Shown: positions 7,790 through 55,709 of the stretch, one piece after another
Numbering within the stretch: position 1 is the stretch's first letter
Layout of the letters: each line of letters opens with the position of its first letter
Assembly (NCBI RefSeq): GCF_002998435.1
Contig: NZ_CP027231.1
Span: forward strand, 1,529,001-1,593,000
Source of the DNA: Bacteroides zoogleoformans
Lineage (GTDB): Bacteria > Bacteroidota > Bacteroidia > Bacteroidales > Bacteroidaceae
DNA length: 64,000 bases
Direction of reading: 5' to 3'
Made by a program: the position numbers and the translations under genes
Notes under the pieces: model-generated
The model's input: the letters and a program-made list of their open reading frames with translations, nothing else
What the model was told of the DNA's origin: nothing
Database searches by the model: none

Positions 7790-7854
7790 AATATTAGAAA
7801 AAAAAGACGGCAGACGTTAGAAACAACAATAGAAACCAGAAAAGAAAAACAGAT

Positions 7855-35194: not shown

Positions 35195-36592
35195 TCAAGT
35201 ACGCCAGAACCACTTCTTCTTGGTGCAAAAGGCCGCTACGCATAGCGCCGGCGTTGTCACGATGACACCTCTGAGAAAGCCTGCCCAAGCATTCTGATTC
35301 AGCAGGTCGAGCCAAGCAGCCAGCCCCGTCAGATGCAGTAAAGGCATGATGAGCAGCTGCGGCGTCACATAGGCTATCATGGGATTCTGCCCCACCAATT
35401 CCAGCAAACGCACCAGGCGGTTCACCCGACGTACATCGCACAAGACGGAGAATGCTATCAGCCCCATGAATGCCAGACCGGAAGTCACAAAGTAATAGCT
35501 GTAGGTGGAGTCGTCTTTGCGGATACCACCTTCGTAGGCCTCGAAGCACAACCCCAACAACAACAGATAGGCACCTGCCACGTAGAGCTTCCGCCAGTAA
35601 CAAAAATCGGGGGTATTTCTGCGCAGCAACAGATGCAGCGCCACCAATAACGCCACCGTGCCCCACAGGTTCAGCACCAACTGTCGGGTGTAAAGCCCAT
35701 ACAGATTCCATGCGATGACACTTACAGCCAAGAGCGCGACCGGCAGCACTATGCGCCATGCGGGGGCTCCGGTCTGTTCTTTGTGTCCGTCGAGCCACTC
35801 GCGCAGGTATTCGCCCGCCACACTGCCCGGAATGACAATAAAAAGATACTTCAGATAGAAGAAACGATACATCCACGGCAGTGGAGTGAAGTTCATCACC
35901 TCGGCTATCCACGAGCCTTCAGTGGCACTGCCGAGAAAGACAGCCATAACAAACGGCAGTACCGCCACGCGCGCCCACCGGTTGCGGTAGGTGAAAAGGT
36001 AAATCAAGGAGCCGAAGATGGCCATGTTGGCCAACACCAGAATGATGATGTTGCTGTAACCGAGGCTGAATACCCTACCACCGGCATAGGGTATCAACAG
36101 CATCATCCCAATGCCCGCAGCATAGGCCCCTAATTCCACAGCCACCCGTACCCATCGGGATATCGACTTGGGAAAGCGCATGAACATGGGAAACAATAAG
36201 AAAAAGGCGGTAATGGCCACTCCCCACGACAAGATGTCTTGAGGAGTGGACACTGACCATGGATACATGTGCTGAATAAAGATAGCAAAAAACGTCAGGC
36301 GGACACCTCGCAACAGACTGTCAAAGGCTATGCGCCCCTTGCTCTCGCCCTTCTCTAACTTTCTGCCTATAGAAAACGGAAAAGCCGCCCCCATGGCAAA
36401 GAGGAAAAACGGGAATACCAAGTCAACCCAAGTAATGCCATATATGGAGGGATCGAAAGCAAAACCGGACCGAGGCCCCACCTGCGCATGAGACATCCAA
36501 GCAGGCAAAACATTAGTAAGAATGGTACCGGAAAGTATCATGGTAAGGATGGCGTATCCTCGGAAGGCATCCAGCGAATCAGCTCTTTTCAT
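35195..36592 (-). CDS. DUF5009 membrane protein (heparan-glucosaminide acetyltransferase-like)
   Basis: About 465 residues with ten or more transmembrane helices. The start MKRADSLDAFRGYAILTMIL and ITWVDLVFPFFLFAMGAAFP are the hallmarks of the DUF5009/HGSNAT-like acyltransferase family, which moves acetyl groups across a membrane onto sugar amines in its eukaryotic member. Activity here is unproven. The ATG at 36592 is chosen over an in-frame TTG three codons upstream. It is the last gene of a five-gene minus-strand unit after the phosphodiester glycosidase (85-base gap), and its stop faces ispG's. An amino-sugar substrate would fit the neighbouring AGE epimerase and phosphodiester glycosidase, but that is inference. 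Confidence 0.8.
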   Translation of the reverse strand: MKRADSLDAFRGYAILTMILSGTILTNVLPAWMSHAQVGPRSGFAFDPSIYGITWVDLVFPFFLFAMGAAFPFSIGRKLEKGESKGRIAFDSLLRGVRLTFFAIFIQHMYPWSVSTPQDILSWGVAITAFFLLFPMFMRFPKSISRWVRVAVELGAYAAGIGMMLLIPYAGGRVFSLGYSNIIILVLANMAIFGSLIYLFTYRNRWARVAVLPFVMAVFLGSATEGSWIAEVMNFTPLPWMYRFFYLKYLFIVIPGSVAGEYLREWLDGHKEQTGAPAWRIVLPVALLAVSVIAWNLYGLYTRQLVLNLWGTVALLVALHLLLRRNTPDFCYWRKLYVAGAYLLLLGLCFEAYEGGIRKDDSTYSYYFVTSGLAFMGLIAFSVLCDVRRVNRLVRLLELVGQNPMIAYVTPQLLIMPLLHLTGLAAWLDLLNQNAWAGFLRGVIVTTPALCVAAFCTKKKWFWRT

Positions 36593-36677
36593 GGTAAGCA
36601 AATCAAATGAATAGTATAAGTTACTTTCTTGTTTTTATTCTAACAGAACGATAAGAGGCTTTTTTCTTTTCACGCCC

Positions 36678-37721
36678 CTATTTCAGTCCCACGGCCGTCA
36701 GTACTTTACGCTGCTTGCCGTCACTTCCTTTTATTGTCTCTTTACCATTGACCAACATGCACGACGAACCGCCTCCGTCCAAGTTCAACGCTTCGACGCA
36801 GCCCAACGATTTCAGTACAGCAGCCACCTTGGCAGTGGACAATCCCGGCACACCCGCGGTCTTGTTGCGCCCCTCGCACACAAAGAGTACCATCTTCTTA
36901 TCCGCCGTGATGCCAATAGCAGTGCGGGGCTGGTTACTTGCCGCCGATACATCCAGCATCTCTTCGACATACGTGTTCTTTATCTGTCCATCACGCAGCA
37001 ACACACCCACTCCACCGATGCCGGTCACGGCATCAAGTTCGCGGGCGCCCGCAGGGAAGGTGGACGAGGGAACCTGCAACGGTGCAGCATTGATGTTATT
37101 GGCTGCCGGAGCCGGATAACAATAGTTCTTCCCGTCACTGGTGAAGTAGGTCCAAGTGGTGCGATAGGTACCATCTTTCATCAGGCAAAAAGCCCCCAGA
37201 GTGGGATACCACAGCGTCACCCAGTCTTTGGAATAATAGTTCTGGTTAGGAGCCAGCAACTTACCTTCGCGCACCACTAAGTTCTGCGAATAATAGAAAG
37301 TCTTACTGCCTTTCTTGGCACCATAGAACAGCCCCGCATTGATGACCACAGGACACTGCGAATCAGCATAGAACTCCGAAGGAGTTTTGAGGGCAGTACC
37401 CACGTAGCCTCCGGCTTCCTGCGAATAGGCTACATCACCCAGAACATTGAACTGTGCGGCAGCCATATCGGCCACCGCAATAAAGGCTATGGCACTAACA
37501 CCTTCCAACTGTGAGGGCGACTTATATACCCGCAAATAGTCAGGCAGCTTACCCAGGTCGGTGACGGGTGTCCAGCCCAGTTTCACGATATCAGGATTCT
37601 TCTCAGCTTCATTTTCCTCTCCCCACTCCCATTCGTGTTCAGGATACTTTTCTCCGCCGCACGAACAGAATAAAGAAGCAAACAAGATAGAAGCTACTAC
37701 AAATAAGGGTTTTCCTAACAT
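36678..37721 (-). CDS. Phosphodiester glycosidase family lipoprotein (NAGPA domain)
   Basis: A 347-residue lipoprotein; the signal ends at LFCSC and is followed by an acidic Glu/Trp linker. The domain resembles the human uncovering enzyme, which removes GlcNAc from GlcNAc-1-phospho-6-mannose: VVINAGLFYGAKKGSK, TAIGITADKKMVLFVCEGR and LNLDGGGSSCML (about 315) are its conserved motifs. Bacterial homologues act on sugar-1-phosphodiesters in envelope or exopolysaccharide material. The ATG at 37721 is chosen over an upstream TTG. It lies 27 bases after the metallophosphoesterase gene, so a glycosidase and a phosphatase for the two sides of a phosphodiester are adjacent. Confidence 0.85.
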   Translation of the reverse strand: MLGKPLFVVASILFASLFCSCGGEKYPEHEWEWGEENEAEKNPDIVKLGWTPVTDLGKLPDYLRVYKSPSQLEGVSAIAFIAVADMAAAQFNVLGDVAYSQEAGGYVGTALKTPSEFYADSQCPVVINAGLFYGAKKGSKTFYYSQNLVVREGKLLAPNQNYYSKDWVTLWYPTLGAFCLMKDGTYRTTWTYFTSDGKNYCYPAPAANNINAAPLQVPSSTFPAGARELDAVTGIGGVGVLLRDGQIKNTYVEEMLDVSAASNQPRTAIGITADKKMVLFVCEGRNKTAGVPGLSTAKVAAVLKSLGCVEALNLDGGGSSCMLVNGKETIKGSDGKQRKVLTAVGLK

Positions 37722-37748
37722 AACCAAATCTCCTATGCTGCTTTTACG

Positions 37749-39197
37749 TCATTTCTTTGAAATTCTCTGTCTGTAAACCCGCCCGAATCGATCAGTCACC
37801 TGCACCTCTATATCGGCGTCAGCGCGCACAGGCGTGGCACGAAACAGATGGGTGGTAGATGCAGCTGCAATCCAGCTCTGTATGGTTTTGCGCTTCTCGG
37901 TGCACACTCTGTCGGCATAGGGGTCGATACCGGTGTATTGCACCATGGAGCCCATAAGCTTTCCGTCTTCCAGCCACTCCACCTTCCAAGCCTTGTCCCA
38001 GTTCCAGACATTGGCAATAATGTCTTGCGGGTATTGCTGTGAGGTTCCGGCAGGATAGGCTCTAAACTGATAGTCGCGAGGATGCCCGGCGCCTTTATAG
38101 TACCATGTCACGTTGTTACCATCTACCTCATATACACCATATCCGCGAGGAGTGCCATCCACACATACGTCACCGTTCCACCAGATACCGCATACCGCAG
38201 CCGTGTTGTGCTCCATATGCCGCTCGCTAAAGACGATGTTCGCATTGGAGTGCAGATGACCGGAAAGGAAGTGAGTTTCATATTTGTCCAGCATACGGTG
38301 CAGGGCCCCGGCATTGGTTGTTTCGCCACCCAACCGCGTATATCCGTATTCAAACGGACGCTCCTTCTCGGTGACACAGGTGGGAATATGGCAGATAACG
38401 AACAACAGTGTGCCTTGAGGCACGTACGCCAAATCTTCTTCCAGCCACCTCAGCGTCTGTTCGTCAAAGTAACCTATGTAGAAGTAGTCACGACCTACGT
38501 AAAAGTTGTTATTCATCACAATGTAGTGTGCGTTCCCCTTATTGAATGAGTAATGTGTAGGGCCGAAAAAGCCTTCGAAGGTGCGGTAAGAGGTCTCGTG
38601 CGTGCGACCGTGAGTATCCATATCATGGTTGCCAATGGTGCGGAAGACGGGAAACCCCAGCTTTTCCGCTTGAGCCATGTAGTCGGGAAACGATTTGAGG
38701 GGTGTATCCCAAAAGATGTCACCGCAGTTCAATCCAAACACGTCTTGCCGCGGATGCTCCTTGACCAGCCCGTTAATCTCCTCTACGATGGGAGCATATT
38801 GCTTCCAATGGTCCGGCAGGCCGGCTTGCACGTCAGCTTCCAGCACGAACAAGTGGCGGGTATCATCCTTCGGGTTCTTCGTCAGGCAAAAATCGTAATG
38901 GCGGGTCTTGCCCGGCTCTATCTCCTGATAGAAGCGGGGAATGGTACGGTCACATTCAGTCAGATAGCCGGCAGGAGTGGACAGATAGACAAAGCGGGCG
39001 CCTCTCTGTACAGGTAACCTGTAGGTACCTTTCTTGTCTGTAGTGACGCAACAAGTGCCATCGGTCACCACTACATCGGAGATTCCTTTGCCGTTGCAGG
39101 TGACGGTGCCCGTAAGAAAGCCGGTTCTATACTTATCGCCTGCCCACAGAGACAAACCGATACACAAGAACAAAGTCAATATAAAAAAGCGTTTCAT
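37749..39197 (-). CDS. Calcineurin-like phosphoesterase with N- and C-terminal accessory domains
   Basis: A 482-residue secreted protein with a signal peptide ending about residue 21 (LSLWAG). An Ig-like N-terminal domain (about 25-110, GTVTCNGKGISDVVV) precedes the metallophosphoesterase core. Its metal-ligand motifs are LEADVQAG, LNCGDIFWD, IGNHDMDTHGR, VICHIPTC and LSGHLHSNA. A C-terminal beta domain (about 335-482) follows; this three-part architecture is common in Bacteroides. The substrate is probably a phosphomonoester or diester in the periplasm. The ATG at 39197 is taken over a TTG two codons upstream. It sits between a GHL10-type protein and the phosphodiester glycosidase. Confidence 0.88.
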   Translation of the reverse strand: MKRFFILTLFLCIGLSLWAGDKYRTGFLTGTVTCNGKGISDVVVTDGTCCVTTDKKGTYRLPVQRGARFVYLSTPAGYLTECDRTIPRFYQEIEPGKTRHYDFCLTKNPKDDTRHLFVLEADVQAGLPDHWKQYAPIVEEINGLVKEHPRQDVFGLNCGDIFWDTPLKSFPDYMAQAEKLGFPVFRTIGNHDMDTHGRTHETSYRTFEGFFGPTHYSFNKGNAHYIVMNNNFYVGRDYFYIGYFDEQTLRWLEEDLAYVPQGTLLFVICHIPTCVTEKERPFEYGYTRLGGETTNAGALHRMLDKYETHFLSGHLHSNANIVFSERHMEHNTAAVCGIWWNGDVCVDGTPRGYGVYEVDGNNVTWYYKGAGHPRDYQFRAYPAGTSQQYPQDIIANVWNWDKAWKVEWLEDGKLMGSMVQYTGIDPYADRVCTEKRKTIQSWIAAASTTHLFRATPVRADADIEVQVTDRFGRVYRQRISKK

Positions 39198-39216
39198 ATT
39201 CAATATTAGCGGGCAG

Positions 39217-40542
39217 TTATTTCAGTGCTCCACCGGCCCGCATTCCGGTTTCCACTTCTTTCCAAAGATTTTTCTCAACGATATGGACAATATCAAATAC
39301 CATCAAACCATCTGAAGCCTTAAGGTTCATCTCAATAGAGGCCGAAAGTTTAGAAGGATTGTCGTAAAATTGATCTACCAGAATGCCTCCCATGAACTTA
39401 TTGTCCTTCAAGATGTGACGCAAGTTCCGACAAGAGCCTTCCACACAATACCAGGTGCCCGATTGTGCTTCCGAGTCAGTCTCGTTCCACACACTGTGAT
39501 TGGTCTTCTTGTACTCCTCAATGGTGATGTCTGTATAATAGTTACCTGTGGTATAGAGGTCAAGCAGCTCAGCATAGCCGTAGTTCTTATAGGTTGGAGT
39601 GGCCCAGTCATAATCTTTACTGGGGTCGTACCGGCAACTGGCAAAGTTTACGCCCACTTCGTAGTACGAAGGATACCAAGCACCGGTGTATGTGCCGAAA
39701 GAGATTTCGGGATTGACAGCCTTCACTTCTTTCCGGGCAAGGGCCATGAAGTCGTAAATGTTCTTGGTGCGCCACTCAATCCATTGCTTAAAGAGCTTGC
39801 CGCGAGCAATACTGTACTTCTTGTCATCATTCAATTTCCACTCAAAGATATCTTCGGGGAAACGTTCCACCTTCTCACCTAAATAAGTCTCGAACTTCCG
39901 GCGAGAGAGGTCGGAGAAATCGGCCGTAATGCCGTCATAGCGCACGCGATCGAGCATCAGTCCATCCAGTTCGGGATAGCGCTTCACCAAGTCTTTCAGC
40001 ACTTGGAGGATGTGAGTTCGGAAATCATCGTTCACGGGATTCACCATGGCCGAATATTTCCGCTTCTCGCCGGTGATGGGCTTCAACCCCTCGGGAGTAT
40101 AAATCACGGAAGCCCACTCAGGATGATCGGTATAAACCAGTCCGCGGTCAAAGAAGTTATGTCCGGCCACGAAGACATTGAGTGAAGCATGTACCTCCAG
40201 GCCTAATTCATGACCTTTCTTAATAAAGTACCCTAAATAGTCGAAGTCCTTGCGCTCATAGCCTTTCCACTCGCGCATCTTGGGCGCAAACTCGGTATCG
40301 AACAACACCTCGCCGGTAATGGGACGCACATCGACAATGGCATGAGTAAACCCCAATGACTTGATTTTAGTCAGATAATAGTCTATAGAATCAGGATTGC
40401 TAAGCCGCGCGAAGTTAGCTTCGGCATCAAACCACATCAGGGCAGGCTTTACACTCTCACCCGCACCAACAGAATTACCCTTGCAACTTCCTAACAAAAG
40501 GACGCACAGGCTCACTAAAAATAATACACTTGTTCGTTTCAT
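39217..40542 (-). CDS. GHL10-type family 10-like glycosyl hydrolase lipoprotein (copy 2)
   Basis: A 441-residue lipoprotein (LLLGSC, Cys 20) with a TIM-barrel fold of the glycosyl-hydrolase-like 10 group (PF02638-like, distant from GH13). Key segments are WFDAEANF, HAIVDVRPITGEVLF, the LMLDRVRYDGITADFSDL strand with acidic candidates, SFGTYTGAWYPSYYEVGVNF and TPTYKNYGYAE. The catalytic residues are not established for this family. It is paralogous to the next upstream gene (40594-41973), with many identical blocks. It is probably periplasmic or surface-exposed; substrate unknown. Confidence 0.82.
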   Translation of the reverse strand: MKRTSVLFLVSLCVLLLGSCKGNSVGAGESVKPALMWFDAEANFARLSNPDSIDYYLTKIKSLGFTHAIVDVRPITGEVLFDTEFAPKMREWKGYERKDFDYLGYFIKKGHELGLEVHASLNVFVAGHNFFDRGLVYTDHPEWASVIYTPEGLKPITGEKRKYSAMVNPVNDDFRTHILQVLKDLVKRYPELDGLMLDRVRYDGITADFSDLSRRKFETYLGEKVERFPEDIFEWKLNDDKKYSIARGKLFKQWIEWRTKNIYDFMALARKEVKAVNPEISFGTYTGAWYPSYYEVGVNFASCRYDPSKDYDWATPTYKNYGYAELLDLYTTGNYYTDITIEEYKKTNHSVWNETDSEAQSGTWYCVEGSCRNLRHILKDNKFMGGILVDQFYDNPSKLSASIEMNLKASDGLMVFDIVHIVEKNLWKEVETGMRAGGALK

Positions 40543-40593
40543 GATTTATTCTTTAAACTTAATATAATTTTACTGCGAGCAAAGCCTCTCGGA

Positions 40594-41973
40594 TTACTTG
40601 GTGGCTCGCTCGATTCCTTGCTTGGCATACTGCCACTGTCCGGCCTTCTTCAGATGAATCATGTCGAAGAGAAAATAACCGTCGCATACATCCATGCAAG
40701 CCTTCACGGACTGCACGATGGCTTGATTCTCTTGCTCCGGAGAAGCTTTATTGTCCGTATCCCAGTTTCCCACATCGGGTCCGCCGGCTACGATGGGACA
40801 TTTGCCCGCCGTCTTTTCCTTGGCCAGCGAACAGAATCCTGCCATTGTCCACTCTGTAGTGCCGAACACTTTCAACGGAGAAGCATACGCCCCAATCAAC
40901 ATCTGATCCATATGCTCGGCGTAGCCATAATTCTTATACTTAGGAGTGGCCCATTTATAGTGGCGTGAAGGGTCGTAAGAAGATGAAGCCCAGTTTACTC
41001 CTACATCATAATAGGTAGAATACCAACCTCCTACATAAACTCCGAACTTTATCCGGCTGTTGACACTCTTCACAGCCGCACGTGCTTTCTGCATAAAATC
41101 GCAGATAACTTTTGCCCGAAACTCCAACCACTTCATCAGGTATTGCGGATAAGCGGAGGGCAGCGAAGAAGCTCCCGAAGCCAAAATATCATCGGGATAG
41201 TTCTGAATCTTCACACCACCCAGATAAGCCTCGAATTGCTTCCGAGTCACATCCGAGAAATCGGAAGTGAGACCCAAAAAGCGTCCGCGGTCCAGGAATA
41301 TGCCGTCCAGGTCATACTTGGCCAAGTCTTTCAACAGGTTACAAAGAAAGGTTTGCACATCAGGATGAGCAGGATTGAAGAACTTGGTGCTCTCACCTGT
41401 ATTCATCACACTGACAATACCGGTTTTCAGATTGAGCCGTGTGGCCCAGCCGGCTTTAGAAGCCTCCCGGAAGAGCAAGCCCGTACCGCCGTTTATGGTA
41501 TTACCTCCCACAAAAGTATTGATGGCGGCATGAACTTTCAAGTTTTGTTTGCGAGCCTCATCGACAAAAGCTTGGAGATAATCCCATGTGGCTGTACGTT
41601 CCACCTTGGTGTAAGCGGGGCCTATCCAGGCATATAAATATTTCACCTGATCCACTGCATCTGTCTTGAACAGCACATCGCCCGTAGTAGGGCGGACATC
41701 TACCACAATATCCGTAAATCCCGCATCTTTGGCCAGTGCCAAGTCGCGTGAAATGTTTTCTTTACTGTTGGCAAAATCAGGAAAATTGGCTGCTGCATCA
41801 ATCCATATATAACGAGGCTTAGCCGCATTCGGATTCTCAACCGGCTTATTTCCGCCACCACCTTCTCCCGTGCCCTCTTCCCAATAATCTTTAGAAGTAT
41901 GGCTACAGGACATGAAAAGACAAACAACACACAGACAGATTGACGTTTTTAGTAAAAACAGAATGGTTTTCAT
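40594..41973 (-). CDS. GHL10-type family 10-like glycosyl hydrolase lipoprotein (copy 1)
   Basis: A 459-residue lipoprotein (LFMSC, Cys 23, then a Gly/Glu linker) paralogous to copy 2. Shared blocks include WIDAAANF, DIVVDVRPTTGDVLF, FLDRGRFLGLTSDFSDV, KFGVYVGGWYSTYYDVGVNW and TPKYKNYGYAE. It leads the second transcription unit, 431 bases downstream of the DUF5018 gene and its terminator. The coding sequence for its signal peptide (41946-41958) contains a further copy of the TTTTTAGTAAAAA motif that forms a 22-bp array upstream. The family is assigned by pattern; activity and substrate are unknown. Confidence 0.82.
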   Translation of the reverse strand: MKTILFLLKTSICLCVVCLFMSCSHTSKDYWEEGTGEGGGGNKPVENPNAAKPRYIWIDAAANFPDFANSKENISRDLALAKDAGFTDIVVDVRPTTGDVLFKTDAVDQVKYLYAWIGPAYTKVERTATWDYLQAFVDEARKQNLKVHAAINTFVGGNTINGGTGLLFREASKAGWATRLNLKTGIVSVMNTGESTKFFNPAHPDVQTFLCNLLKDLAKYDLDGIFLDRGRFLGLTSDFSDVTRKQFEAYLGGVKIQNYPDDILASGASSLPSAYPQYLMKWLEFRAKVICDFMQKARAAVKSVNSRIKFGVYVGGWYSTYYDVGVNWASSSYDPSRHYKWATPKYKNYGYAEHMDQMLIGAYASPLKVFGTTEWTMAGFCSLAKEKTAGKCPIVAGGPDVGNWDTDNKASPEQENQAIVQSVKACMDVCDGYFLFDMIHLKKAGQWQYAKQGIERATK

Positions 41974-42139
41974 AGAAATATTTCTTTTTATGATATTTCA
42001 ATGCATGCTCAAGGCAATGCGGTTACGCTCATAACCAACCCGGGGCGATATAAATTTCACGACAATAATACTTCACAAATCAGACCTTCGGCTTTATCTG
42101 AAAATCAACGAGATACGATTATACTAAAAACTCTCCCGA

Positions 42140-42218
42140 TTTTTAGTAATTTCTCCCCGAATTTTTAGTAAAAATCCCCTGAGTTTTTAGTAAAAATCCG
42201 GTGAACTTTTAGTAAAAA
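42140..42218. promoter_or_regulatory. Four TTTTTAGTAAAAA motifs at exact 22-bp spacing
   Basis: The near-palindrome TTTTTAGTAAAAA occurs exactly at 42162-42174 and 42184-42196, with one-sided variants at 42140-42149 and 42206-42218. All starts are 22 bases apart, about two helical turns. A further half-site ACTAAAAA lies at 42123-42130 and a full copy at 41946-41958 inside the first GHL10 gene. Spacing and symmetry suggest sites for a dimeric or multimeric regulator on one face of DNA. Confidence 0.6.
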
Positions 42219-42343
42219 CAAAACCGGAGTTCTTCATGAAGACTTTTTTAGACACAAAATTCTTACACAGAGGCATGAATAGGGAGTCTGACTGAAGCGA
42301 CAGTCAGTGCGTCTTTATATCGAACTTTCAGAGGGTTACTATA

Positions 42344-42380
42344 ATGAAAGGCCTGTGCCTGAAACACACAGGCCTTTCAT
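42344..42380 (-). terminator. Strong hairpin after the DUF5018 gene
   Basis: ATGAAAGGCCTGTG (42344-42357) pairs perfectly with CACAGGCCTTTCAT (42367-42380) around a 9-base loop, 25 bases past the DUF5018 stop. No good T-tract follows on the minus strand, so termination may be partial. Confidence 0.6.
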
Positions 42381-42404
42381 CTTTTCTATAAGCAGCATCC
42401 CGGC

Positions 42405-44078: not shown

Positions 44079-44101
44079 TATTGTTCTGAATTTTAGTTCT
44101 G

Positions 44102-45733: not shown

Positions 45734-45745
45734 ATACTTTCAGTT

Positions 45746-48700: not shown

Positions 48701-48892
48701 CCCGCCTTCAATGTTTGTAATCGTCCCTACAGTAGAGCCTTTCACTTGGATAGAGGCACCGGGAAGAGGTTCTCCCTGACTGTCCTTTACTGTTCCTTTT
48801 ATCACGCTTTGTGCAGCGACATTCATTGCACACATCAACGCAATAAACAACGAGGTTAAAAACCTCAGATTCCATCTGATTCTTTTTTTCAT
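45746..48892 (-). CDS. SusC/RagA family TonB-linked outer membrane protein
   Basis: A 1048-residue outer-membrane transporter: signal peptide to about residue 27 (NVAAQ), carboxypeptidase-like domain (about 30-105, LPGASIQVKGSTVGTIT), LDEVVVVGYGTQKRGSLT as the TonB-linker segment, plug (about 115-220, YVIDGIRRTSADF and ILKDASAVAVYGLDANGV) and a barrel ending TMGIKLTF. It imports the ligand captured by SusD. Unusually, it is the sixth gene of its apparent operon, not the first. Only 24 bases separate it from the preceding DUF4434 gene and no internal promoter box was found. Confidence 0.95.
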   Translation of the reverse strand: MKKRIRWNLRFLTSLFIALMCAMNVAAQSVIKGTVKDSQGEPLPGASIQVKGSTVGTITNIEGGFSINAKSRDILIVSFIGMRSEEVKVGGQSFITITLRDDVASLDEVVVVGYGTQKRGSLTSAISTVSDKELLKAPTMSLSNVVGARVAGVAAVQSSGQPGADNATLTMRGQSGIVYVIDGIRRTSADFNGLDPNEIESVSILKDASAVAVYGLDANGVFIVTTKKGNADKMSITYTGSYGWSQNAEQQEWLDGPGYAYWHNKARELQGDQPIFNAEMVKNMRNGTNGWGNTNWYDKIFGTGTRTHHNISASGGSERVKFFASLGYLKEDGNIDHFDYERLNLRSNIDAKLTNSLTFQLGVSGRVEKRDAPVYSADPNAWHNIPQQIIRALPYAQDSQTIGGKQYQVATPTASSPVAPLASMNEAGYARSNYSYIQSNFSLKYDAPWLKGLSAKFQGAYDLTYTFSKSMHNYYQLALMNLPNASTKELTYTKQYDPRSGSVSLTESAARGYSFTTQTSVNYDNKFGAHTIGAMLLAETRENKSNALGGTGYGLDFVQLDELNQITNQTGNGSTKYPVINGYSGHTRIAGFVGRINYNYDNRYYAEVSFRRDGSYLFGGMNKRWVTLPGVSLAWRINNESWFHAPWVDNLKLRAGVGKTATSGVSPFQWRNTMGINKNSVIIGGVSQSMLYAATLGNPNLTWAQCLNYNIGVDATMWNGLLGVEFDVFYKYEYDKLSTVTGAFSPSRGGYYFSSANVNECDYKGFETTLTHHGHIGKFNYGAKLIWSYAYGRWLKYVGDSENAPEYQRLTGKQIGVKRGFIANGLFRDDADIKNSPTIPGKSVRPGYIKYVDRNGDGVITYEQDMGYVGKSATPKHTGSLNLFGNWKGFDFDMLFSWGLDNSVALTGQYTASGSEGIMDNTSYTKPFYHGGNSPVFLVENSWRPDNLNAEFPRLEIDNVSSNNAFSSTLWYRNGDYLRLKTIQVGYNFPKQWLAPAGIQNLRLYVEGYNLLTFSGLTKYNIDPESPAVNNGYYPQQKTYTMGIKLTF

Positions 48893-48916
48893 CGCATTAC
48901 ATTATTAGAATTAGGT

Positions 48917-49984
48917 TTATAAAAAGTGTTCACAATATCTATGATACAAATGCCCCGCTTGCAAATAGGCGGAATTCGGACTCATGAAATGCGAGAACTC
49001 AAAAGTGATGGCATTCTCCATTCCCGCTCTGCGAGCCGCATCTAACTTCAAAAGCAGTTTTTCCCACTTAATGGGAAGAAAACGAATAGGCATATCACGA
49101 TCAAAAGACTCGATGTTTGTCCAGCAGTGCATACCGTATCTGTCAGCCAGTTTCTTATTGACGACCAAATAGTCGTATAGTTCATGATAATCTACCTGTC
49201 CATCCTGAAAAGCCAGAATATCGACCGCACCTTTCACATTGTCCAATATCTCGTCCCACTCCTCTTCATGCTCCTTTACCGAAAGGGCTTTATCACCCGC
49301 CATCACCTGATCGGTTTTCACGCCATGAATATAAGGAGAAACCAGAGTGGTCAGTCCTCCGGATACCTCTTTGGCATGCTTTCCTACCTCAGCATATATT
49401 TTGGACATATTCCTGGTGCGCCGACTGATTTCCTGCGACAAATACCAGCCCTTAAACGAGCGATGATGACCATACTTCTTCCAGACCTCATCTATCAGTG
49501 CCATGTTCAGGTCTATCTCTTTCTGGAAAAGACCTTCTTGCCAATATTTACCGGAATCGTACATCCCAAAATAGAAAGCCATACCATGCTTGTCGGCAAG
49601 TGTCAGAAACATCTCGACTAAGTCCACGGGAGGATAGTAAACATCTTCCCTCTCAAGCAAACAACGATAGGGTGCTGAAATCCATTTTCCAAGCCCTGCC
49701 CTGATAAGTACCACGGTATTGATACCCATCTGCTTCATAGCCTTGAAGTCAGCGTTCCATTCACGAACTCCCCAGTTCTGATGAGGGATATCCCAACTTA
49801 CTTCATCCAAAAAAGTAGCCCGAATAGGCATTCCTTTCAAGACATCCTGTGTGGCAAAACTCGGGAAGTTTTCTTCTTCCACTTTGGAGCCTTTATCCAA
49901 AGAGCAAGCTGTCAATAACTTGCTCCCGGCTAACATGGAACAAGAAGCAAGCGCCACTTTCAAGAAATTACGTCGTCCATTCAT
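48917..49984 (-). CDS. DUF4434 TIM-barrel lipoprotein (copy B)
   Basis: A 355-residue protein with a twin-arginine-like or lipoprotein signal (GRRNFLKVALASCSMLAG then LLTAC). The mature part is a DUF4434-type barrel: TFLDEVSWDIPHQNWG, FGMYDSGKYW, GWYLSQEISRRTRN with a candidate catalytic Glu, LAFQDGQVDYHEL, WTNIESFDRDMPIRFLPIKW and ITFEFSHFMSP. The family is related to glycoside hydrolase barrels but its activity is not firmly known to me. It is paralogous to the gene at 52605-53708, which lies two genes upstream. Gaps of 18 and 24 bases on either side place it in the operon. Confidence 0.82.
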   Translation of the reverse strand: MNGRRNFLKVALASCSMLAGSKLLTACSLDKGSKVEEENFPSFATQDVLKGMPIRATFLDEVSWDIPHQNWGVREWNADFKAMKQMGINTVVLIRAGLGKWISAPYRCLLEREDVYYPPVDLVEMFLTLADKHGMAFYFGMYDSGKYWQEGLFQKEIDLNMALIDEVWKKYGHHRSFKGWYLSQEISRRTRNMSKIYAEVGKHAKEVSGGLTTLVSPYIHGVKTDQVMAGDKALSVKEHEEEWDEILDNVKGAVDILAFQDGQVDYHELYDYLVVNKKLADRYGMHCWTNIESFDRDMPIRFLPIKWEKLLLKLDAARRAGMENAITFEFSHFMSPNSAYLQAGHLYHRYCEHFL

Positions 49985-50002
49985 TGTTATAGTTTTAATA
50001 CG

Positions 50003-51169
50003 TTAAAGTGTCTCTAATACCTGCCAACACTGGAATAATCCTCTGGGCACATGAAAACAACCTTTCCATTTGCCTCCCTTCAAAGGAAGCAAGACTTCAC
50101 CTCTACGATTCAGATAGCCGTACCATTCAGAATACTCGGTATCTTTAAAATGGCTCCATGTGTAGTCGTGTATCTTCTCGAACCATTCCAAACAGTTTTC
50201 ATCACCGGTCAACTGATAACCTTTAATCATGGAGATTAATGTTTCGATGTGTACCCACCATAGTTTTTGATCCCATTCCAACTGCTGAGGAGGAAAGCCC
50301 TTGCGATCCATAAAGTAGTAGATGCCGCCGAACTCTTTGTCCCATCCATATTCCAGCATCTTCAGAGCCGTATCTTTGGCTTTTTCTATCAGCTCAGGAA
50401 GATTCAAGCGTTTACCTAAATCCATAATAAACCACATAGCCTCAATAGCATGCCCCGGAGTGACTTGGCGCCCCTCAAAACAATCTACCAAACTGTTGTC
50501 CTCGTTTAGATTCTCTACGATGATGCCTCCCAACTCAGGACGAAGAAAAACTTCCATTACCTCATGAATACAGGTATCCATTGTCTTCATCAAGAAATCT
50601 TCATCCAACAGGTGTTCTATTTCCAAAGCCAGATTGCAGAGAATCATCGGCAGGGCAAAACCTTTCAGATTACGCGTACCGGGATGCTGTTTGTTCCATT
50701 TCCCTTTAGGGTTGTTCACCTTAGAAAGAATGATGTCGAAAGTCTTTCTGGCAATCTCTGCATACTCCTGATTTCCGGTAGCAAGATTCAATTGGCCGAA
50801 AGCCATCGTAGCAAAAGTATAGGAGAAGATGTTATAAGGCTCCACTAACGGATGCCCCTCACGGTCTAAAGAAAAATACCAGTTGTAATGGCCATCATGC
50901 CCATATTTCTTCAAGAACTCTCCACCTTGTATGGCACAATCCAGCCACTCCTGCTTCTTCTCTACCTTGTTATAAAGCATGGAGAACAACCAGACTTCCC
51001 GGCCTTGGAGCCAGATAAATTTATCCGTATCAAAGACCTTTCCATCACGATTCAAACACGTAAAATAGCCTCCACACTCTTTATCTTGAGAATTTTCAAG
51101 CCAAAAGGGAAGTACATTACCCAACAATTCATTCTTATATTGGGCTGCTAATTCTCTAAAATTCACCAT
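50003..51169 (-). CDS. AGE-family epimerase/isomerase (N-acylglucosamine 2-epimerase type)
   Basis: A 388-residue (alpha/alpha)6-barrel protein. The N-terminal FWLENSQDKECGGYFTCL and FIWLQGREVWLFSML, and later HPGTRNLKGFALPMI, TPGHAIEAMWFIMD with a catalytic His, and LWWVHIETLISMI with the second His region, are typical of AGE/RnBP and cellobiose epimerases. No signal peptide is present, so it acts in the cytoplasm. Likely reactions are ManNAc/GlcNAc or mannose/glucose-type interconversion; sequence alone does not choose. It sits between an MFS sugar porter and a DUF4434 protein, which suggests processing of the transported sugar. Confidence 0.88.
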   Translation of the reverse strand: MVNFRELAAQYKNELLGNVLPFWLENSQDKECGGYFTCLNRDGKVFDTDKFIWLQGREVWLFSMLYNKVEKKQEWLDCAIQGGEFLKKYGHDGHYNWYFSLDREGHPLVEPYNIFSYTFATMAFGQLNLATGNQEYAEIARKTFDIILSKVNNPKGKWNKQHPGTRNLKGFALPMILCNLALEIEHLLDEDFLMKTMDTCIHEVMEVFLRPELGGIIVENLNEDNSLVDCFEGRQVTPGHAIEAMWFIMDLGKRLNLPELIEKAKDTALKMLEYGWDKEFGGIYYFMDRKGFPPQQLEWDQKLWWVHIETLISMIKGYQLTGDENCLEWFEKIHDYTWSHFKDTEYSEWYGYLNRRGEVLLPLKGGKWKGCFHVPRGLFQCWQVLETL

Positions 51170-51201
51170 TGCAATATCTGTTTAAAATTAAGGTCGATTT
51201 A

Positions 51202-52599
51202 TCAGTTTTTCCAGTAAGTCTCAATTTCTTCCAAAGACTTACCGGTTGTTTCCGGAACCAATTTCCAAACAATAAGTATATAAGGCACACACATGAAAGC
51301 GAACAGAAAGAATGTTCCTGAGGGAGTAAGGTTCTGAAGCATCCAAGGGGTTAACTGCCCGATTAAATAAGTACCAATCCAAAGAGAGAAGCCTGCAATT
51401 GACATAGCCAGCCCGCGAACTTTCGTTGGATACATCTCTGAAAGAAGAACCCAAATGACTGCACAAATGGATATGGCACAGCAAAACACATAAAAGAGGA
51501 AAAATACCAGCAAGAAATAGGCGGGAATCTGTAGAACCTCTCCATAACAGAAATAGAACCCGATTAACAGCAACGAGACAATCATACCTGACACGCCATA
51601 ATATACCAGCCTTTTACGTCCAACCCGATCTATGATAAACAATGCCAACACCGTGGTAAGCATATTGACTCCTCCTACCAGCACTTGATAGAATAGAGAG
51701 TCTCCACCGGAGATTCCCGCATTCTCAAAAATAGAAGGGCCGTAATAGAGCACAGCATTTACTCCCATAAACTGTCCTAAGATGGCTATGGATGCTCCTA
51801 TCAGAACGGCTTTCCGGATACCCGGATTCAGCAGAACACGCCACTCCGACTTTGTATCAGAGGCTATCGCGCTTTTCGTTTCATTCAACTGTACCATTGC
51901 CTGCATGGTAGAATCATAAATCCGGCCCAATATTTTTTGAGCTTTCTGTTCCTCTCCTTTCAAAATCAGCCAGCGGGGACTCTCAGGAACAAAAAGGATA
52001 GTCAACAAAAAGAAGACGGCCGGCAGAGCTTCTATGCCCAACATTCCTCTCCAGACTTCTGAAATGAAAATCTTGCCGAACCATCCTGTTCCTGCCATCA
52101 CCTGCCCGTCCGCCCAGTTCATCAATTGGAAATTGCATAGATAAGCTCCTAAAAAGCCTACAGTCACAGCCAACTGATATAAAGAGACCAATCGCCCCCG
52201 ATATTCAGCCACAGCAATCTCGGAAATATATAGTGGAGAGATGATGGAAACAACGCCTATACCCACTCCACCAATAATACGATAAACCACCAGTTGCTCA
52301 AAATTCAGGCACAAAGCACAACCCACAGCCGACACAGAGAACAATACCGACGAAAACAGCATGGTCTTTTTCCGACCGAAATAATCGCCCAGCACCCCCG
52401 CAAAAGCCACTCCTGCAATAGAGCCAACCAAGGCACACCCTACATACCACCCTTGTTCCACCACATCCAGACGGAACAATTGAGAGACCATGGTGATGGT
52501 ACCGGAGATTACCGCCGTGTCATACCCGAAAAGGAAACCACCCAATGCAGCAACAAAGGATAGAAAAACCATGTACCCCATATTTACACCCTGCTTCAT
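51202..52599 (-). CDS. Sugar porter family MFS transporter
   Basis: A 465-residue inner-membrane transporter with 12 helices. The sugar-porter signatures are clear: LFGYDTAVISGT in helix 1, GDYFGRKK between helices 2 and 3, YRIIGGVGIGVVSIISPLYI, VPESPRWLI, GMIVSLLLIGF after IDRVGRKRLVY, and the C-terminal PETTGKSLEEIE. It would carry a mono- or small oligosaccharide, probably with H+ symport, into the cytoplasm for the downstream AGE epimerase. It is 5 bases downstream of one DUF4434 gene and 32 bases upstream of the epimerase gene. The exact sugar is unknown. Confidence 0.93.
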   Translation of the reverse strand: MKQGVNMGYMVFLSFVAALGGFLFGYDTAVISGTITMVSQLFRLDVVEQGWYVGCALVGSIAGVAFAGVLGDYFGRKKTMLFSSVLFSVSAVGCALCLNFEQLVVYRIIGGVGIGVVSIISPLYISEIAVAEYRGRLVSLYQLAVTVGFLGAYLCNFQLMNWADGQVMAGTGWFGKIFISEVWRGMLGIEALPAVFFLLTILFVPESPRWLILKGEEQKAQKILGRIYDSTMQAMVQLNETKSAIASDTKSEWRVLLNPGIRKAVLIGASIAILGQFMGVNAVLYYGPSIFENAGISGGDSLFYQVLVGGVNMLTTVLALFIIDRVGRKRLVYYGVSGMIVSLLLIGFYFCYGEVLQIPAYFLLVFFLFYVFCCAISICAVIWVLLSEMYPTKVRGLAMSIAGFSLWIGTYLIGQLTPWMLQNLTPSGTFFLFAFMCVPYILIVWKLVPETTGKSLEEIETYWKN

Positions 52600-52604
52600 G
52601 ACAC

Positions 52605-53708
52605 CTACTTTATTTCAAAATATTCTTTATACCTGTCATACAAATGTCCTGCTTGCAGATAGGCTGACTGAGGACTCATGAAGTGAGAGAACTCAAATGT
52701 TATGGCTTTATCATAACCGGCACGCTTGGCCGCTTCCAACTTCAAGCGTAGCTTATCGAACTTAATAGGCAGAAACCTGATGGGCATGTCTCTGTCAAAA
52801 CTTTCAGCATTGGTCCAGCATTGCATTCCATACTTATCCGCCAATTTCTTATTCACCGTAAAGAAGCTATCTAATTCATCATAATCGATATGCCCGTCCT
52901 GAAAAGCACAAGCATCTACCACATCGTGAATCCCGTCAAAGATTTCATTCCATTCTCTTTCGTGCTCTTCTACAGATACCGCCTCATCTTTGGTAAGCTT
53001 ACCCCCACTTGCCATAACAGCCTTCTTGCCGTCAATCCATGGAGAAATAAAGGTAGGCAACCCATTAGATACCTCCTTGCATTGTTTCCCCATCGAGTGG
53101 AAAGCCTCTATCGCTCCTTTCGTTGCACGACTTATTTCACCACTGATATACCATCCGCCAAAACTACCGTACTTGCTGCCGTATTGTTGCCATACCTCAT
53201 CAATCACATACTTGTTATCCTCTATCTCCCAACTCAAATCGCCAGTATCCCAATAGCGCCCGGAGTCATACAAACCAAAATAAAACTTCATACCATGTTT
53301 CTCGGCCAATCGCAGATACATGTCCAACAAATCTACCGAGGGCATGTAACACCCTTTACCTAACAAATACTTTGAGGGATAAGTGATGAACTTCCGATAA
53401 CCCGAGCGAATCATGATAACGGTATCAATGCCTATCCGCTTCATATGTTGGAAATCCAAATCCCACTCTTTCTCACCCCAATTTTGATGAGGGATATCAT
53501 GTGAAATCTCGTCCAGAAAAGTTCCGGTGATTTTCAAGCCCTGATTCTTGGGAACAATCAGTTTTCCGGTAAATTCACCGGCGACTGCCGATTCTGCCGT
53601 TTCTTTATTCTGCCTTTCCCCACATCCCAGTAAGGAAGGCGCCACCAAAGCCGAAGCTCCAGCAATCGTAGCTTTCTTTAAAAAACTTCTTCTACTATTC
53701 ATTTCCAT
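52605..53708 (-). CDS. DUF4434 TIM-barrel lipoprotein (copy A)
   Basis: A 367-residue protein with a Tat-like start (SRRSFLKKATIAGASALV) and lipobox SLLGC. It closely resembles copy B: TFLDEISHDIPHQNWG, FGLYDSGRYW, GWYISGEISRATKG, CAFQDGHIDYDEL, WTNAESFDRDMPIRFLPIKF and ITFEFSHFMSPQSAYLQAGH. The conserved Glu in ISGEIS and acidic residues near the barrel ends are candidates for catalysis (inference). It is 43 bases downstream of the FAD oxidoreductase gene and 5 bases upstream of the MFS transporter gene. Confidence 0.82.
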   Translation of the reverse strand: MEMNSRRSFLKKATIAGASALVAPSLLGCGERQNKETAESAVAGEFTGKLIVPKNQGLKITGTFLDEISHDIPHQNWGEKEWDLDFQHMKRIGIDTVIMIRSGYRKFITYPSKYLLGKGCYMPSVDLLDMYLRLAEKHGMKFYFGLYDSGRYWDTGDLSWEIEDNKYVIDEVWQQYGSKYGSFGGWYISGEISRATKGAIEAFHSMGKQCKEVSNGLPTFISPWIDGKKAVMASGGKLTKDEAVSVEEHEREWNEIFDGIHDVVDACAFQDGHIDYDELDSFFTVNKKLADKYGMQCWTNAESFDRDMPIRFLPIKFDKLRLKLEAAKRAGYDKAITFEFSHFMSPQSAYLQAGHLYDRYKEYFEIK

Positions 53709-53751
53709 AAGTTCTTACGTTTTGAGTTACATTATATCCTTTAAAATCAAC

Positions 53752-55629
53752 CTATTGAATAAACTGTCCCTTGATGTCTATCTCCTTATTATTGAAAGGA
53801 TCCAGCAGCTGATCTATTAACACTGCCATTTCTCCTCTCAATATAGCACGTTTCAAATCAAAGTTCTTCATCCCGAATTCTTGCCACACCTGCTCTGCCC
53901 GCTTCATCATATTCCCTTTCAGGTTCTCCTCAACTGCTACTTTACGAATAATTTCAACAGCCTCTTCCACGGTGACCGGTGTATCTCCTCTCCGAGAAAG
54001 ATTTACATGGGGATACACATCCGATAAGCCCTGCAATTCTGATGCAAGGAGCAAAGTATCGGCCCGCAACCAGGTTTGATTACTCCATTTCACATTGCGT
54101 CCCACTCCTTTTAGAATACCCGTAGAGCCGATTCGTTGGTAAGACTTGAACCGGATATCCTCTGCCGGAACATCCAAATAGGGCATTAGATAACCTTTAG
54201 CATCCAATATCGCCTTCTGTACACTCCTTACTCCCACCTCACTCACCTTCTTTTGTTGCATCACCGACAAAGCCGCCAATGCGCCTGCTGCCTGTCCTAT
54301 CTGCAAAACAACCGGCTGCAGGCGGGTGGTTCCATTCGCTATGTTAGAGACAGAAATGGATTTCTCTGCTACGATTAAACCTTCTACCTCTTGAGGTATC
54401 AGTGCGCCCAAAGGCAAGCCAAACGAAGGAATGGGATGAAAATACAAATTAGGCAACTCTTCATAACCATGGTAACGTGTGTGGTGGTGATCAACCGGAT
54501 AATCCCCGACAGCAATGCTTGTGCGATACAACGGTTCCACCTGCGTATAAGGATGTGTAATATGGTTCAAAGTAAAGCGTACCAGACCATGTATACGCCG
54601 TGACTCCCGGTGATAGGGAATAAAAGGAAGTCTATCTGTCGTGGGATACTCATCGTCGGCAAGTCCTAATGTTTTATAGCCGAGTTCATGTTGCATGAAA
54701 TAGACGAAGCACAAGGTATAGTGTTTGGCATATTCCAGTGCTTTCTTTCGCTCTTCAGGAGTCATCTCTACTAAATTGATGTAGTAATCATTACCCTCTA
54801 TCGGCCAATTTATCATATACTTATTATTAGGAAGCCTTCCATAGGTCAGCATCATCTCTTTAGACCAAACGCGGTCCGGCTCTTTAGGGGTAATGCAGAT
54901 TGGATTTGCACATGCACAAGCAAACTCTTTCGGGTCATACCCCTCCGGTTGTGAAATAGTGACATCTTTTCCATAATCTTTAAGAATTGCTACATAGGTG
55001 ATATCCTGCACGATATTATTCCCCTTTTCAGGAGCAATATCTTCATTGGTATCGCTGCGACTTTCCATACCTATATCATACTTCACACCACACAACTTTG
55101 CCACATCCCCAAGTTCGGTTGCATCAATCAACACCTTGGCACGAACTGTCTTCAGCCCCTTATCCTTGGTTTGCACAACTGCCAACCAACATTCACCTTC
55201 TCGTTTGAGGTCCTTTAAAGTGGCTTGTTTCCAGACTGACAGATTTTTCTCTGCCTGCGTCATTTCGTGTAGAACAGCATTACCTGCCGATGGCTCAAAA
55301 AGCAGATTGCTGACCCAGCCTGTACGCATCGCATCAAGGCCTCCATAATAGTCAGACAAGCGATTTTTTAATTCTCCCCAAAGTCCGGCAGGCAGATTGT
55401 AATTTCCATCAATGGCGCTGACACCTGCAGCGGTAAGCATTCCTCCCAACCACTCGGTTTCTTCTATAATTAGCGCCTTAACCCCCATTCTTGCCGCCTG
55501 AATGCCGGAAGTCACTCCACTGGCACCACCGCCCACCACGAGTACATCTATTTGATTATCCTGCGCATCATCATAAGGTATAAAAGACGTAAACAGAATG
55601 CTTAAACAAGCTATAAGGAAAGACTTCAT
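53752..55629 (-). CDS. FAD-dependent oxidoreductase (FAD_oxidored family), exported
   Basis: A 625-residue flavoprotein with an N-terminal signal peptide (about 1-18) and the dinucleotide-binding motif VLVVGGGASGVTSGIQAAR (about 29-47). ALIIEETEWLGGMLTAAGV, IDATELGDVAKLCGV and a C-terminal FAD region (GLIVAEKSISVSNIANGTTRLQ) follow. It belongs to the FAD_oxidored (PF12831-like) group often found in Bacteroidetes carbohydrate loci. It is the first gene of the large minus-strand operon and has a good promoter. It may oxidise or epimerise a sugar outside the cytoplasm, but no reaction is established. The last 100 residues are helical, a possible separate module. Confidence 0.87.
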   Translation of the reverse strand: MKSFLIACLSILFTSFIPYDDAQDNQIDVLVVGGGASGVTSGIQAARMGVKALIIEETEWLGGMLTAAGVSAIDGNYNLPAGLWGELKNRLSDYYGGLDAMRTGWVSNLLFEPSAGNAVLHEMTQAEKNLSVWKQATLKDLKREGECWLAVVQTKDKGLKTVRAKVLIDATELGDVAKLCGVKYDIGMESRSDTNEDIAPEKGNNIVQDITYVAILKDYGKDVTISQPEGYDPKEFACACANPICITPKEPDRVWSKEMMLTYGRLPNNKYMINWPIEGNDYYINLVEMTPEERKKALEYAKHYTLCFVYFMQHELGYKTLGLADDEYPTTDRLPFIPYHRESRRIHGLVRFTLNHITHPYTQVEPLYRTSIAVGDYPVDHHHTRYHGYEELPNLYFHPIPSFGLPLGALIPQEVEGLIVAEKSISVSNIANGTTRLQPVVLQIGQAAGALAALSVMQQKKVSEVGVRSVQKAILDAKGYLMPYLDVPAEDIRFKSYQRIGSTGILKGVGRNVKWSNQTWLRADTLLLASELQGLSDVYPHVNLSRRGDTPVTVEEAVEIIRKVAVEENLKGNMMKRAEQVWQEFGMKNFDLKRAILRGEMAVLIDQLLDPFNNKEIDIKGQFIQ

Positions 55630-55678: not shown

Positions 55679-55709
55679 CAAATATACATATATTTTTTTA
55701 TTAAACAAG
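55679..55709 (-). promoter_or_regulatory. Promoter of the PUL-like operon
   Basis: On the minus strand CTTG (55709-55706) is followed after 19 bases by TATATTTG (55686-55679), a near-ideal Bacteroidetes promoter. It lies about 50 bases upstream of the FAD oxidoreductase ATG and is the best candidate for transcription of the block down to 42405. Confidence 0.6.

What the first reader, a model, noticed from the sequence alone, without database searches (positions are those of the whole stretch)
35195..55629. 20-kb PUL-like region with no mainstream glycosidase and no linked regulator
Thirteen co-directional genes combine a SusC/SusD pair, two DUF4434 barrels, two GHL10-type barrels, an exported FAD oxidoreductase, an MFS sugar porter, an AGE epimerase, a phosphodiester glycosidase, a calcineurin-type phosphoesterase, DUF5018 and DUF5009. 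No hybrid two-component sensor, SusR or ECF-sigma/anti-sigma pair lies in or next to it, and no classical GH, PL or sulfatase is evident. SusC is sixth in its operon. This is an unusual make-up for a PUL and a good candidate for an undescribed catabolic system.
Basis: partly seen in the sequence, partly recalled or inferred. Interest (0 to 1): 0.7.

Follow-up and report, generated by a model that had tools for sequence, protein, structure and literature searches.

The report
Phosphoglycan-foraging gene cluster with unlinked regulator
A Bacteroides genome carries a conserved 13-gene nutrient-scavenging cluster whose enzymes point to sugar chains joined by phosphate links, perhaps from the walls of other bacteria; what it really feeds on is untested.

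Summary
In detail: 13 minus-strand genes at 35195-55629 with the stated families, SusC sixth. They form two units (8 + 5 genes) split by 431 bp.

It is a conserved, patchily distributed Bacteroidota PUL. Its DUF4434 protein is 91% identical to B. thetaiotaomicron BT_0435, and BT0446-BT0454 carry matching annotations; [quoted passage not shown]

Regulator: in 15 of 23 Bacteroides stretches a ROK repressor (NanR type) sits beside the first genes. Here a 75-79% identical ROK sits about 0.56 Mb away in a sialic-acid-type operon. The first promoter has a genome-unique perfect 27-bp inverted repeat whose layout recurs in 12 of 14 ROK-adjacent promoters. Trans control is inferred.

Substrate: phosphodiester glycosidase, metallophosphoesterase, GlcNAc 2-epimerase and HGSNAT-like acetyltransferase fit an N-acetylhexosamine glycan with phosphodiesters. 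Glycerophosphodiesterase genes lie within 15 kb of the module in at least 10 of 37 genomes (0.7 expected; relatedness uncorrected, distance chosen afterwards). I favour teichoic-acid/cell-wall polymers; host glycans stay open (GH89, GH20, GH92 in some relatives). GHL10 enzymes lack Cwp19's proposed active-site residues.

DUF4434 barrels keep an invariant Glu pair, so 'no glycosidase' is probably wrong.

The parts
55697..55723 (.). Perfect 27-bp inverted repeat TTTATTAAA-N9-TTTAATAAA, 10 bp ahead of a TATATTTG -7-type box: proposed operator of a ROK repressor
   Evidence: Only zero-mismatch site in the genome; TTTATTANN-N9-TTTAATAAA stands 6 bp ahead of the same box in 12 of 14 ROK-adjacent promoters of relatives. 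Binding not tested.
53752..55629 (-). Exported FAD-dependent oxidoreductase (PF12831), gene 1
   Evidence: Pfam E 2e-97; signal-peptide-like start and GGGASG motif read directly
52605..53708 (-). DUF4434 barrel a, Tat-type lipoprotein signal; counterpart of BT_0435 (PDB 4h41)
51202..52599 (-). MFS sugar porter (XylE-like), inner-membrane uptake
   Evidence: Sugar_tr E 1e-113; TIGR00879 above cut-off
50003..51169 (-). N-acyl-D-glucosamine 2-epimerase (AGE)
   Evidence: NF052547 722 bits against cut-off 600; nearest solved 6f04/2gz6 GlcNAc 2-epimerases
48917..49984 (-). DUF4434 barrel b; twin-arginine-like lipoprotein start by eye
   Evidence: Pfam E 3e-73; start read directly
45746..48892 (-). 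SusC-like TonB-dependent transporter, sixth gene
   Evidence: Plug + CarbopepD_reg_2
44102..45733 (-). SusD-like lipoprotein
   Evidence: SusD_RagB E 2e-45; nearest solved 3qnk
42405..44111 (-). DUF5018 lipoprotein, probable surface glycan-binding protein; last gene of unit 1
   Evidence: Pfam E 6e-102; binding role inferred
40594..41973 (-). GHL10 + DUF4985 barrel a, first gene of unit 2
   Evidence: Pfam
39217..40542 (-). GHL10 + DUF4985 barrel b
37749..39197 (-). Three-domain calcineurin-type phosphoesterase
   Evidence: MetallophosN/Metallophos/MetallophosC; GD, GNHD and SGHLH motifs read directly
36678..37721 (-). NAGPA-type phosphodiester glycosidase, lipoprotein-like start
   Evidence: PF09992 E 4e-27; similar to 3ohg and NAGPA structures; NLDGGGSS motif read directly
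35195..36592 (-). DUF5009 membrane acyltransferase (HGSNAT-like)
   Evidence: PF16401 E 3e-74; DUF5009 intermixes with HGSNAT in PMC12423673

Best explanation
A conserved Bacteroidota polysaccharide utilization locus for an N-acetylhexosamine glycan that carries phosphodiester links, most likely teichoic-acid-type or related cell-wall phosphoglycan from other bacteria. Proposed order of events, all inferred from families: DUF5018/SusD bind the polymer at the surface and SusC imports fragments; the NAGPA enzyme splits a HexNAc-1-phosphodiester; the metallophosphoesterase removes the freed phosphate or phosphodiester; DUF5009 re-acetylates free glucosamine; DUF4434 and GHL10 barrels cut glycosidic bonds; the MFS porter imports GlcNAc/ManNAc and AGE interconverts them for central metabolism. 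Expression is controlled in trans by the NanR/NagC-like ROK protein encoded in the sialic-acid-type operon, so both routes converge on ManNAc/GlcNAc. Shown: gene content, conservation, ROK linkage in relatives, genome-unique inverted repeat, GDPD clustering in relatives. Inferred: every enzymatic step, the operator's role, the substrate. My split: HexNAc phosphodiester glycan about 0.55; teichoic-acid/cell-wall polymer specifically about 0.35.
For: Families and cut-offs. AGE equivalog and nearest solved GlcNAc 2-epimerases. NAGPA kinship to 3ohg and NAGPA structures. Further phosphate-acting genes in relatives: GDPD next to DUF5009 and a second calcineurin-type protein in G268 (L158), an alkaline phosphatase divergent to DUF4434a in L037, and GDPD within 15 kb of the MFS gene in at least 10 of 37 genomes, 0.69 expected under random placement, 0 of 2,000,000 simulations reached 10. 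None of the printed GH29 (fucosidase) rows lay within 15 kb of those MFS genes (truncated list, compared by eye). Regulator: ROK beside the module in 15 of 23 Bacteroides stretches, a 75-79% identical ROK in the own nan-like operon; inverted repeat; PMC3878776 assigns BT0433 'Sialic acid; N-acetylglucosamine', ROK. GHL10b fold nearest to Cwp19 and PgaB, of which Cwp19 is a peptidoglycan lytic transglycosylase and PgaB is a poly-GlcNAc enzyme. Loci also in records titled as reactor (L025) and soil (L043), so not only host-associated.
Against: GHL10 proteins here lack Cwp19's proposed active-site W127, R132 and D196 (small residue, V and R in their places), and another GHL10 enzyme is reported to act on starch, so peptidoglycan activity cannot be transferred. 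GDPD sits in relatives, not in this window; the 15-kb limit was set after seeing the places, and several of the 10 genomes are probably close kin. GH89 (BT0438 is a GH89 that cuts heparosan oligosaccharides; title and abstract start, passages), GH20, GH92 (L026) and a BNR_2 sialidase-like protein (L018) among relatives fit host glycans too. BT_0439 SusC was seen with galacto- and milk oligosaccharides and is called implicated in host glycan degradation. NAGPA is found in 21 of 43 compared stretches (some are cut by contig ends). The own nan promoters do not match the 27-bp repeat at up to 3 mismatches, and at 3 mismatches the control pattern found as many sites (8 and 8). The cluster is patchy: the SusD matched at E 1e-60 in 10 of 201 family genomes.
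Confidence: 0.5

Rival explanations
1. Host-glycan PUL: the cluster degrades HexNAc-rich host glycans (N-glycan, heparan/heparosan-like or lysosomal-type GlcNAc-P-mannose structures), with DUF5009 and GH89 mimicking lysosomal HGSNAT and NAGLU.
For: GH89 (NAGLU) lies within 30 kb of the MFS or NAGPA gene in six genomes by my reading (G239 second copy, G032, G298, G285, G302, G201; no statistic), one of them scanned by Pfam. BT0438 is a GH89 active on heparosan oligosaccharides (passages). [quoted passage not shown] The B. thetaiotaomicron operons are induced in vivo. GH92 follows GHL10a in L026, GH20 is in 8 of 43 stretches, a BNR_2 protein is in L018.
Against: The own genome has no NAGLU match. 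No PL, sulfatase or GH88 family was hit among 40 extra ORFs scanned (many other extra ORFs were not scanned), and none of the 13 window proteins hit a sialidase family. Orthologous loci occur in records titled soil and reactor. A GH29 lies beside the own nan-like operon rather than here.
Confidence: 0.25
2. Peptidoglycan or PNAG-type beta-GlcNAc polymer scavenging without a role for teichoic acid: GHL10 barrels are endo-enzymes of the Cwp19/DigH/PgaB sort and the phosphate enzymes are accessory.
Against: Cwp19 active-site residues are not conserved; none of the 13 proteins hit an amidase, muramidase or MurNAc-handling family; NAGPA, metallophosphoesterase and GDPD stay unexplained.
Confidence: 0.12
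3. Sialic-acid-related locus: the cluster is an accessory sialoglycan system under NanR, with SASA esterases as de-O-acetylases.
Against: The own genome has a separate operon with a NanL-like lyase (137 bits, below the 281 cut-off), its own MFS and an AGE 35% identical to this one. No lyase family among the 13 proteins and no SASA hit; SusD scores 30.8 bits against a NanU cut-off of 425.
Confidence: 0.08

Closest known systems
Bacteroides thetaiotaomicron BT0433-BT0454 region (operons BT0453-BT0449 and BT0439-BT0443)
   Same: DUF4434a is 91% identical to BT_0435; BT0446-BT0449 are annotated DUF5009, GH10-like, calcineurin C-terminal, GH10-like, and BT0451-54 SusD, TonB receptor, sugar porter; ROK NanR = BT0433; [quoted passage not shown]
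   Different: There the regulator is in the same region and a GH89 (BT0438) and DUF4855 (BT0442) are present; here the ROK is unlinked and neither gene is among the 13. The VPI-5482 sequence itself was not fetched.
NAGPA / DUF2233 phosphodiester glycosidases (uncovering enzyme; B. ovatus 3ohg)
   Same: Pfam PF09992 above cut-off; conserved NLDGGGSS region aligns.
   Different: Only 64.6 bits over about 100 residues to 3ohg, so probably a paralogous branch; natural substrate unknown. That 3ohg is from B. ovatus and has weak GlcNAc-P-mannose activity is recalled, not read (paper not held).
Cwp19 / DigH (GHL10 peptidoglycan enzymes) and PgaB GH153
   Same: Same barrel fold and, for Cwp19, the Pfam family GHL10; D195 of Cwp19 kept.
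   Different: W127, R132 and D196 replaced; extra DUF4985 domain; lies in a PUL. That DigH is GHL10 and PgaB GH153 is recalled.
Bacteroidetes nan (sialic acid) operon
   Same: Shares an AGE-type epimerase, an MFS porter and the ROK repressor family.
   Different: No lyase; AGE 35% identical to the nan-type AGE of the same genome; SusD far below the NanU cut-off.

Membership tests
Polysaccharide utilization locus | SusC/SusD pair | tested here: met
   Plug/CarbopepD_reg_2 and SusD_RagB
Polysaccharide utilization locus | Linked degradative enzymes | tested here: inconclusive
   Barrels and phosphoesterases of glycan-acting folds present; no activity known; dbCAN not available
Polysaccharide utilization locus | Linked HTCS, SusR or ECF regulator (common in PULs, not required) | tested here: not met
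   None among the 13 genes or the 7 neighbours scanned; a ROK is linked in relatives
BT0433-BT0454-type locus | Orthologous genes in the same order | tested here: inconclusive
   BT_0435 91% identity and matching annotations; VPI-5482 DNA not fetched
NAGPA phosphodiester glycosidase | Domain above cut-off and conserved motif | tested here: met
   95.9 bits, cut-off 25; NLDGGGSS
NAGPA phosphodiester glycosidase | Hydrolysis of a sugar-1-phosphodiester | not testable with these tools
   needs an assay
Cwp19-type GHL10 lytic transglycosylase | GHL10 fold | tested here: met
Cwp19-type GHL10 lytic transglycosylase | Conserved W127, R132, D196 of the proposed active site | tested here: not met
   Alignments read against residues named in PMC5765458; numbering offset inferred
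GH153 (PgaB) | Family membership | tested here: inconclusive
N-acyl-D-glucosamine 2-epimerase | NCBIfam equivalog cut-off | tested here: met
   722 bits, cut-off 600
NagX glucosamine N-acetyltransferase | NCBIfam equivalog cut-off | tested here: not met
   39 bits, cut-off 480; only DUF5009 is met
Sialic acid (nan) operon | N-acetylneuraminate lyase in the locus | tested here: not met
   None of the 13; NanL-like gene, itself below the NCBIfam cut-off, about 0.56 Mb away
Retaining clan GH-A glycosidase (DUF4434) | Glu pair at ends of beta-4 and beta-7 | tested here: inconclusive
   E191 and E302 invariant in 23 of 23, after beta-4 and at the end of beta-7 in the model, but pLDDT of block 301-310 is 58 and the distance was not measured

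The most novel reading that the evidence does not exclude
This is a PUL type dedicated to teichoic-acid-like phosphoglycans of other bacteria: NAGPA cuts the GlcNAc-1-phosphate bond of the wall linkage unit, DUF4434 enzymes act as beta-N-acetylmannosaminidases on ManNAc-GlcNAc, and AGE with NanR makes ManNAc the shared signal and intermediate of sialic-acid and cell-wall scavenging.
Probability: 0.25. Interest if true: 0.8.

Novelty: new variant of a known kind. Interest (0 to 1): 0.5.

Why it matters
If right, it gives a substrate class to an in-vivo-induced Bacteroides operon whose food a 2020 paper still called unknown, and links gut and environmental Bacteroidota to recycling of Gram-positive wall polymers. 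It also names testable enzymes in families for which I found no assigned activity (DUF4434, GHL10+DUF4985, MetallophosN/C; search 16) and suggests that a PUL can lose its adjacent regulator while staying under trans control.

Tried and rejected
1) The TTTTTASTAAAAA repeats in the 431-bp gap as a locus-specific operator: rejected, they recur elsewhere in the genome, often in 22-bp-spaced groups, and show only scattered one-mismatch hits in relatives' stretches. 2) Direct transfer of Cwp19 peptidoglycan activity to GHL10a/b: rejected as a membership claim because key residues differ. 3) Sialic-acid operon: rejected as filing, a separate one exists. 4) The nan promoters sharing the 27-bp repeat: not found at up to 3 mismatches; only loosely similar AT-rich promoter sequence. 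5) First literature search polluted by unrelated BT04xxxx accession numbers; repeated with whole words. 6) No printed substrate for this locus found in searches of the held library (open-licence PMC only; listings seen, passages of the papers cited; Martens 2008 not read, known only through PMC6989115). 7) FADox role: only weak nucleotide-binding-domain matches among solved structures, left open. 8) Sequence searches of the PDB gave no hit for DUF5018, the metallophosphoesterase or DUF5009.
Full report
WHAT IS THERE. The window lies at 1529001-1593000 of a single 3.36-Mb contig. Gaps are -10 to 76 bp except 431 bp after DUF5018, so I read two transcription units: FADox-DUF4434a-MFS-AGE-DUF4434b-SusC-SusD-DUF5018 and GHL10a-GHL10b-metallophosphoesterase-NAGPA-DUF5009. 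Three listed ORFs probably start at an internal ATG (metallophosphoesterase 39197, NAGPA 37721, DUF5009 36592). The best hit with an organism name for the NAGPA protein is from Bacteroides heparinolyticus, 86% identity.

CONSERVATION. One scan of genome contigs with SusD gave 69 loci (pattern-based and limited to 80 candidates). I mapped L003-L045 (43 loci, SusD at 42% identity or more) and left out the other 26 as paralogue-level (32% or less). I added 23 stretches of other Bacteroides genomes. Of these 66, 43 had SusD at 37% or more and GHL10 at 40% or more. Among the 43: GHL10a 42, DUF5018 40, SusC 39, metallophosphoesterase 30, GHL10b 29, AGE 23, DUF5009 23, MFS 21, DUF4434a 21, NAGPA 21, DUF4434b 20, SASA 19, FADox 15, ROK 13, SGNH esterase 9, GH20 8, ADP-ribosylglycohydrolase-like 5 (matches of 30% or more). 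These are lower bounds: many stretches end at contig ends, and L005/G002, and probably L007/G248, are the same genome twice (inferred). Twelve further loci share the SusD (11 DUF5018, 10 SusC) without GHL10; of these 12, 7 have a GH26-like protein, 5 GH3, 4 NagA-like and 4 NagB-like genes, again amino-sugar catabolism by my reading. The cluster is patchy: SusD at E 1e-60 in 10 of 201 family genomes, MFS at E 1e-150 in 37 of 119 and NAGPA at E 1e-30 in 17 of 119 genus genomes. Record titles include a lab-scale reactor (L025) and soil (L043), so it is not confined to hosts.

THE REGULATOR. In 15 of the 23 Bacteroides stretches a ROK gene sits beside the FADox/DUF4434a/MFS module; the other 8 lack it in the stretch. 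Of the 15, I compared 14 promoters (G248 was dropped because its ROK ORF is a 206-aa piece). Not all 14 carry the SusC/D-GHL10 part: the ROK follows the module. A ROK relative is present in 21 of the 66 stretches, 19 at 49% identity or more to the G220 protein and 2 at 35%; L025, L038 and L043 show linkage outside Bacteroides. PMC3878776 (passages) names BT0433 NanR, ROK family, 'Sialic acid; N-acetylglucosamine', and BT4338 as Crp. The own genome has two ROK proteins. One, L191:4985-6214, is 75-79% identical to 13 full-length linked ROKs (73-75% to the two shorter ones), best NCBIfam match NagC but below cut-off. It lies near 2.14 Mb beside an MFS porter, a NanL-like lyase (below its cut-off) and an AGE paralogue 35% identical to the AGE of this locus. 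The FADox promoter has a perfect 27-bp inverted repeat at 55697-55723, the only zero-mismatch site of that pattern in the genome; at 3 mismatches there were 8 sites and the reversed control gave 8. TTTATTANN-N9-TTTAATAAA stands in 12 of 14 relatives' promoters 6 bp before TATATTTG; here the spacing is 10 bp. The nan promoters do not match at that stringency. So trans control by the ROK is likely but not shown; BT4338-dependence is a second layer known from print.

THE SUBSTRATE. Three co-localisation results bear on it. GDPD: of 37 genomes with the MFS gene (the own genome is one of them), 10 have a printed GDPD place within 15 kb (G245, G292, G228, G149, G288, G252, G238, G237, G280, G309), against 0.69 expected under random placement; none of 2,000,000 simulations reached 10. 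The list is truncated, so 10 is a lower bound; G268 has one too by direct reading (L158), not counted. The 15-kb limit was chosen after seeing the places, and relatedness was not corrected. The own genome's two GDPD matches are elsewhere. GH29 as a host-glycan control: no printed place lay within 15 kb of those MFS genes (truncated list, by eye). GH89, which favours alpha-GlcNAc, lies within 30 kb in six genomes (no statistic), and has no match in the own genome. Among 40 extra ORFs of relatives scanned there were also GH20, GH3, GH26, GH43, GH92, a BNR_2 protein and several acetyl-esterase families. The set - phosphodiester glycosidase, phosphoesterases, GlcNAc/ManNAc epimerase, acetyltransferase, O-acetyl esterases in relatives - fits a HexNAc phosphoglycan. 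The wall-teichoic-acid linkage unit (ManNAc-GlcNAc-1-P-6-MurNAc; recalled) would use nearly all of them, which is why I favour it, but GH89/GH20/GH92 and in vivo induction leave host glycans open.

VERDICT. A real, conserved and partly printed PUL with unknown substrate. Interest 0.5.

Noticed in passing
window 42120-42220 and 41946-41958; also genome positions near 534041, 1749823, 1997214, 3146801, 3228339: TTTTTASTAAAAA sites, several in groups at about 22-bp spacing; 13 exact genome sites against 3 for the reversed control, neighbours seen. A repeat or protein-binding array of unknown role.
   Followed up: partly
L191:6215-8230 (own genome near 2.144 Mb): Between the ROK and the nan-like MFS gene lie, by eye, a YhcH-like reading frame and a transposase-like frame (6953-7936, minus), suggesting an insertion in the nan region.
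   Followed up: no
L191:1887-3254 (own genome 2140234-2141169): A GH29 fucosidase lies beside the ROK/nan-like operon.
   Followed up: no
L007 and the G248 stretch (L151): The AGE gene is split into three ORFs in the B. reticulotermitis record and in G248, and the ROK of G248 is a short piece: decay or draft errors.
   Followed up: no
L134:11895-13082 and neighbours (G220, probably B. ovatus): A second, opposite-facing cluster with a more typical GHL10 protein (Pfam 160 bits), another NAGPA, SASA and DUF5009 follows the PUL.
   Followed up: partly
L011, L012, L029, L034: A sister SusC/D-DUF5018 lineage sits with GH26-like or GH3 proteins and NagA- or NagB-like enzymes, in part with a PBP-AraC regulator: a different amino-sugar PUL.
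   Followed up: partly
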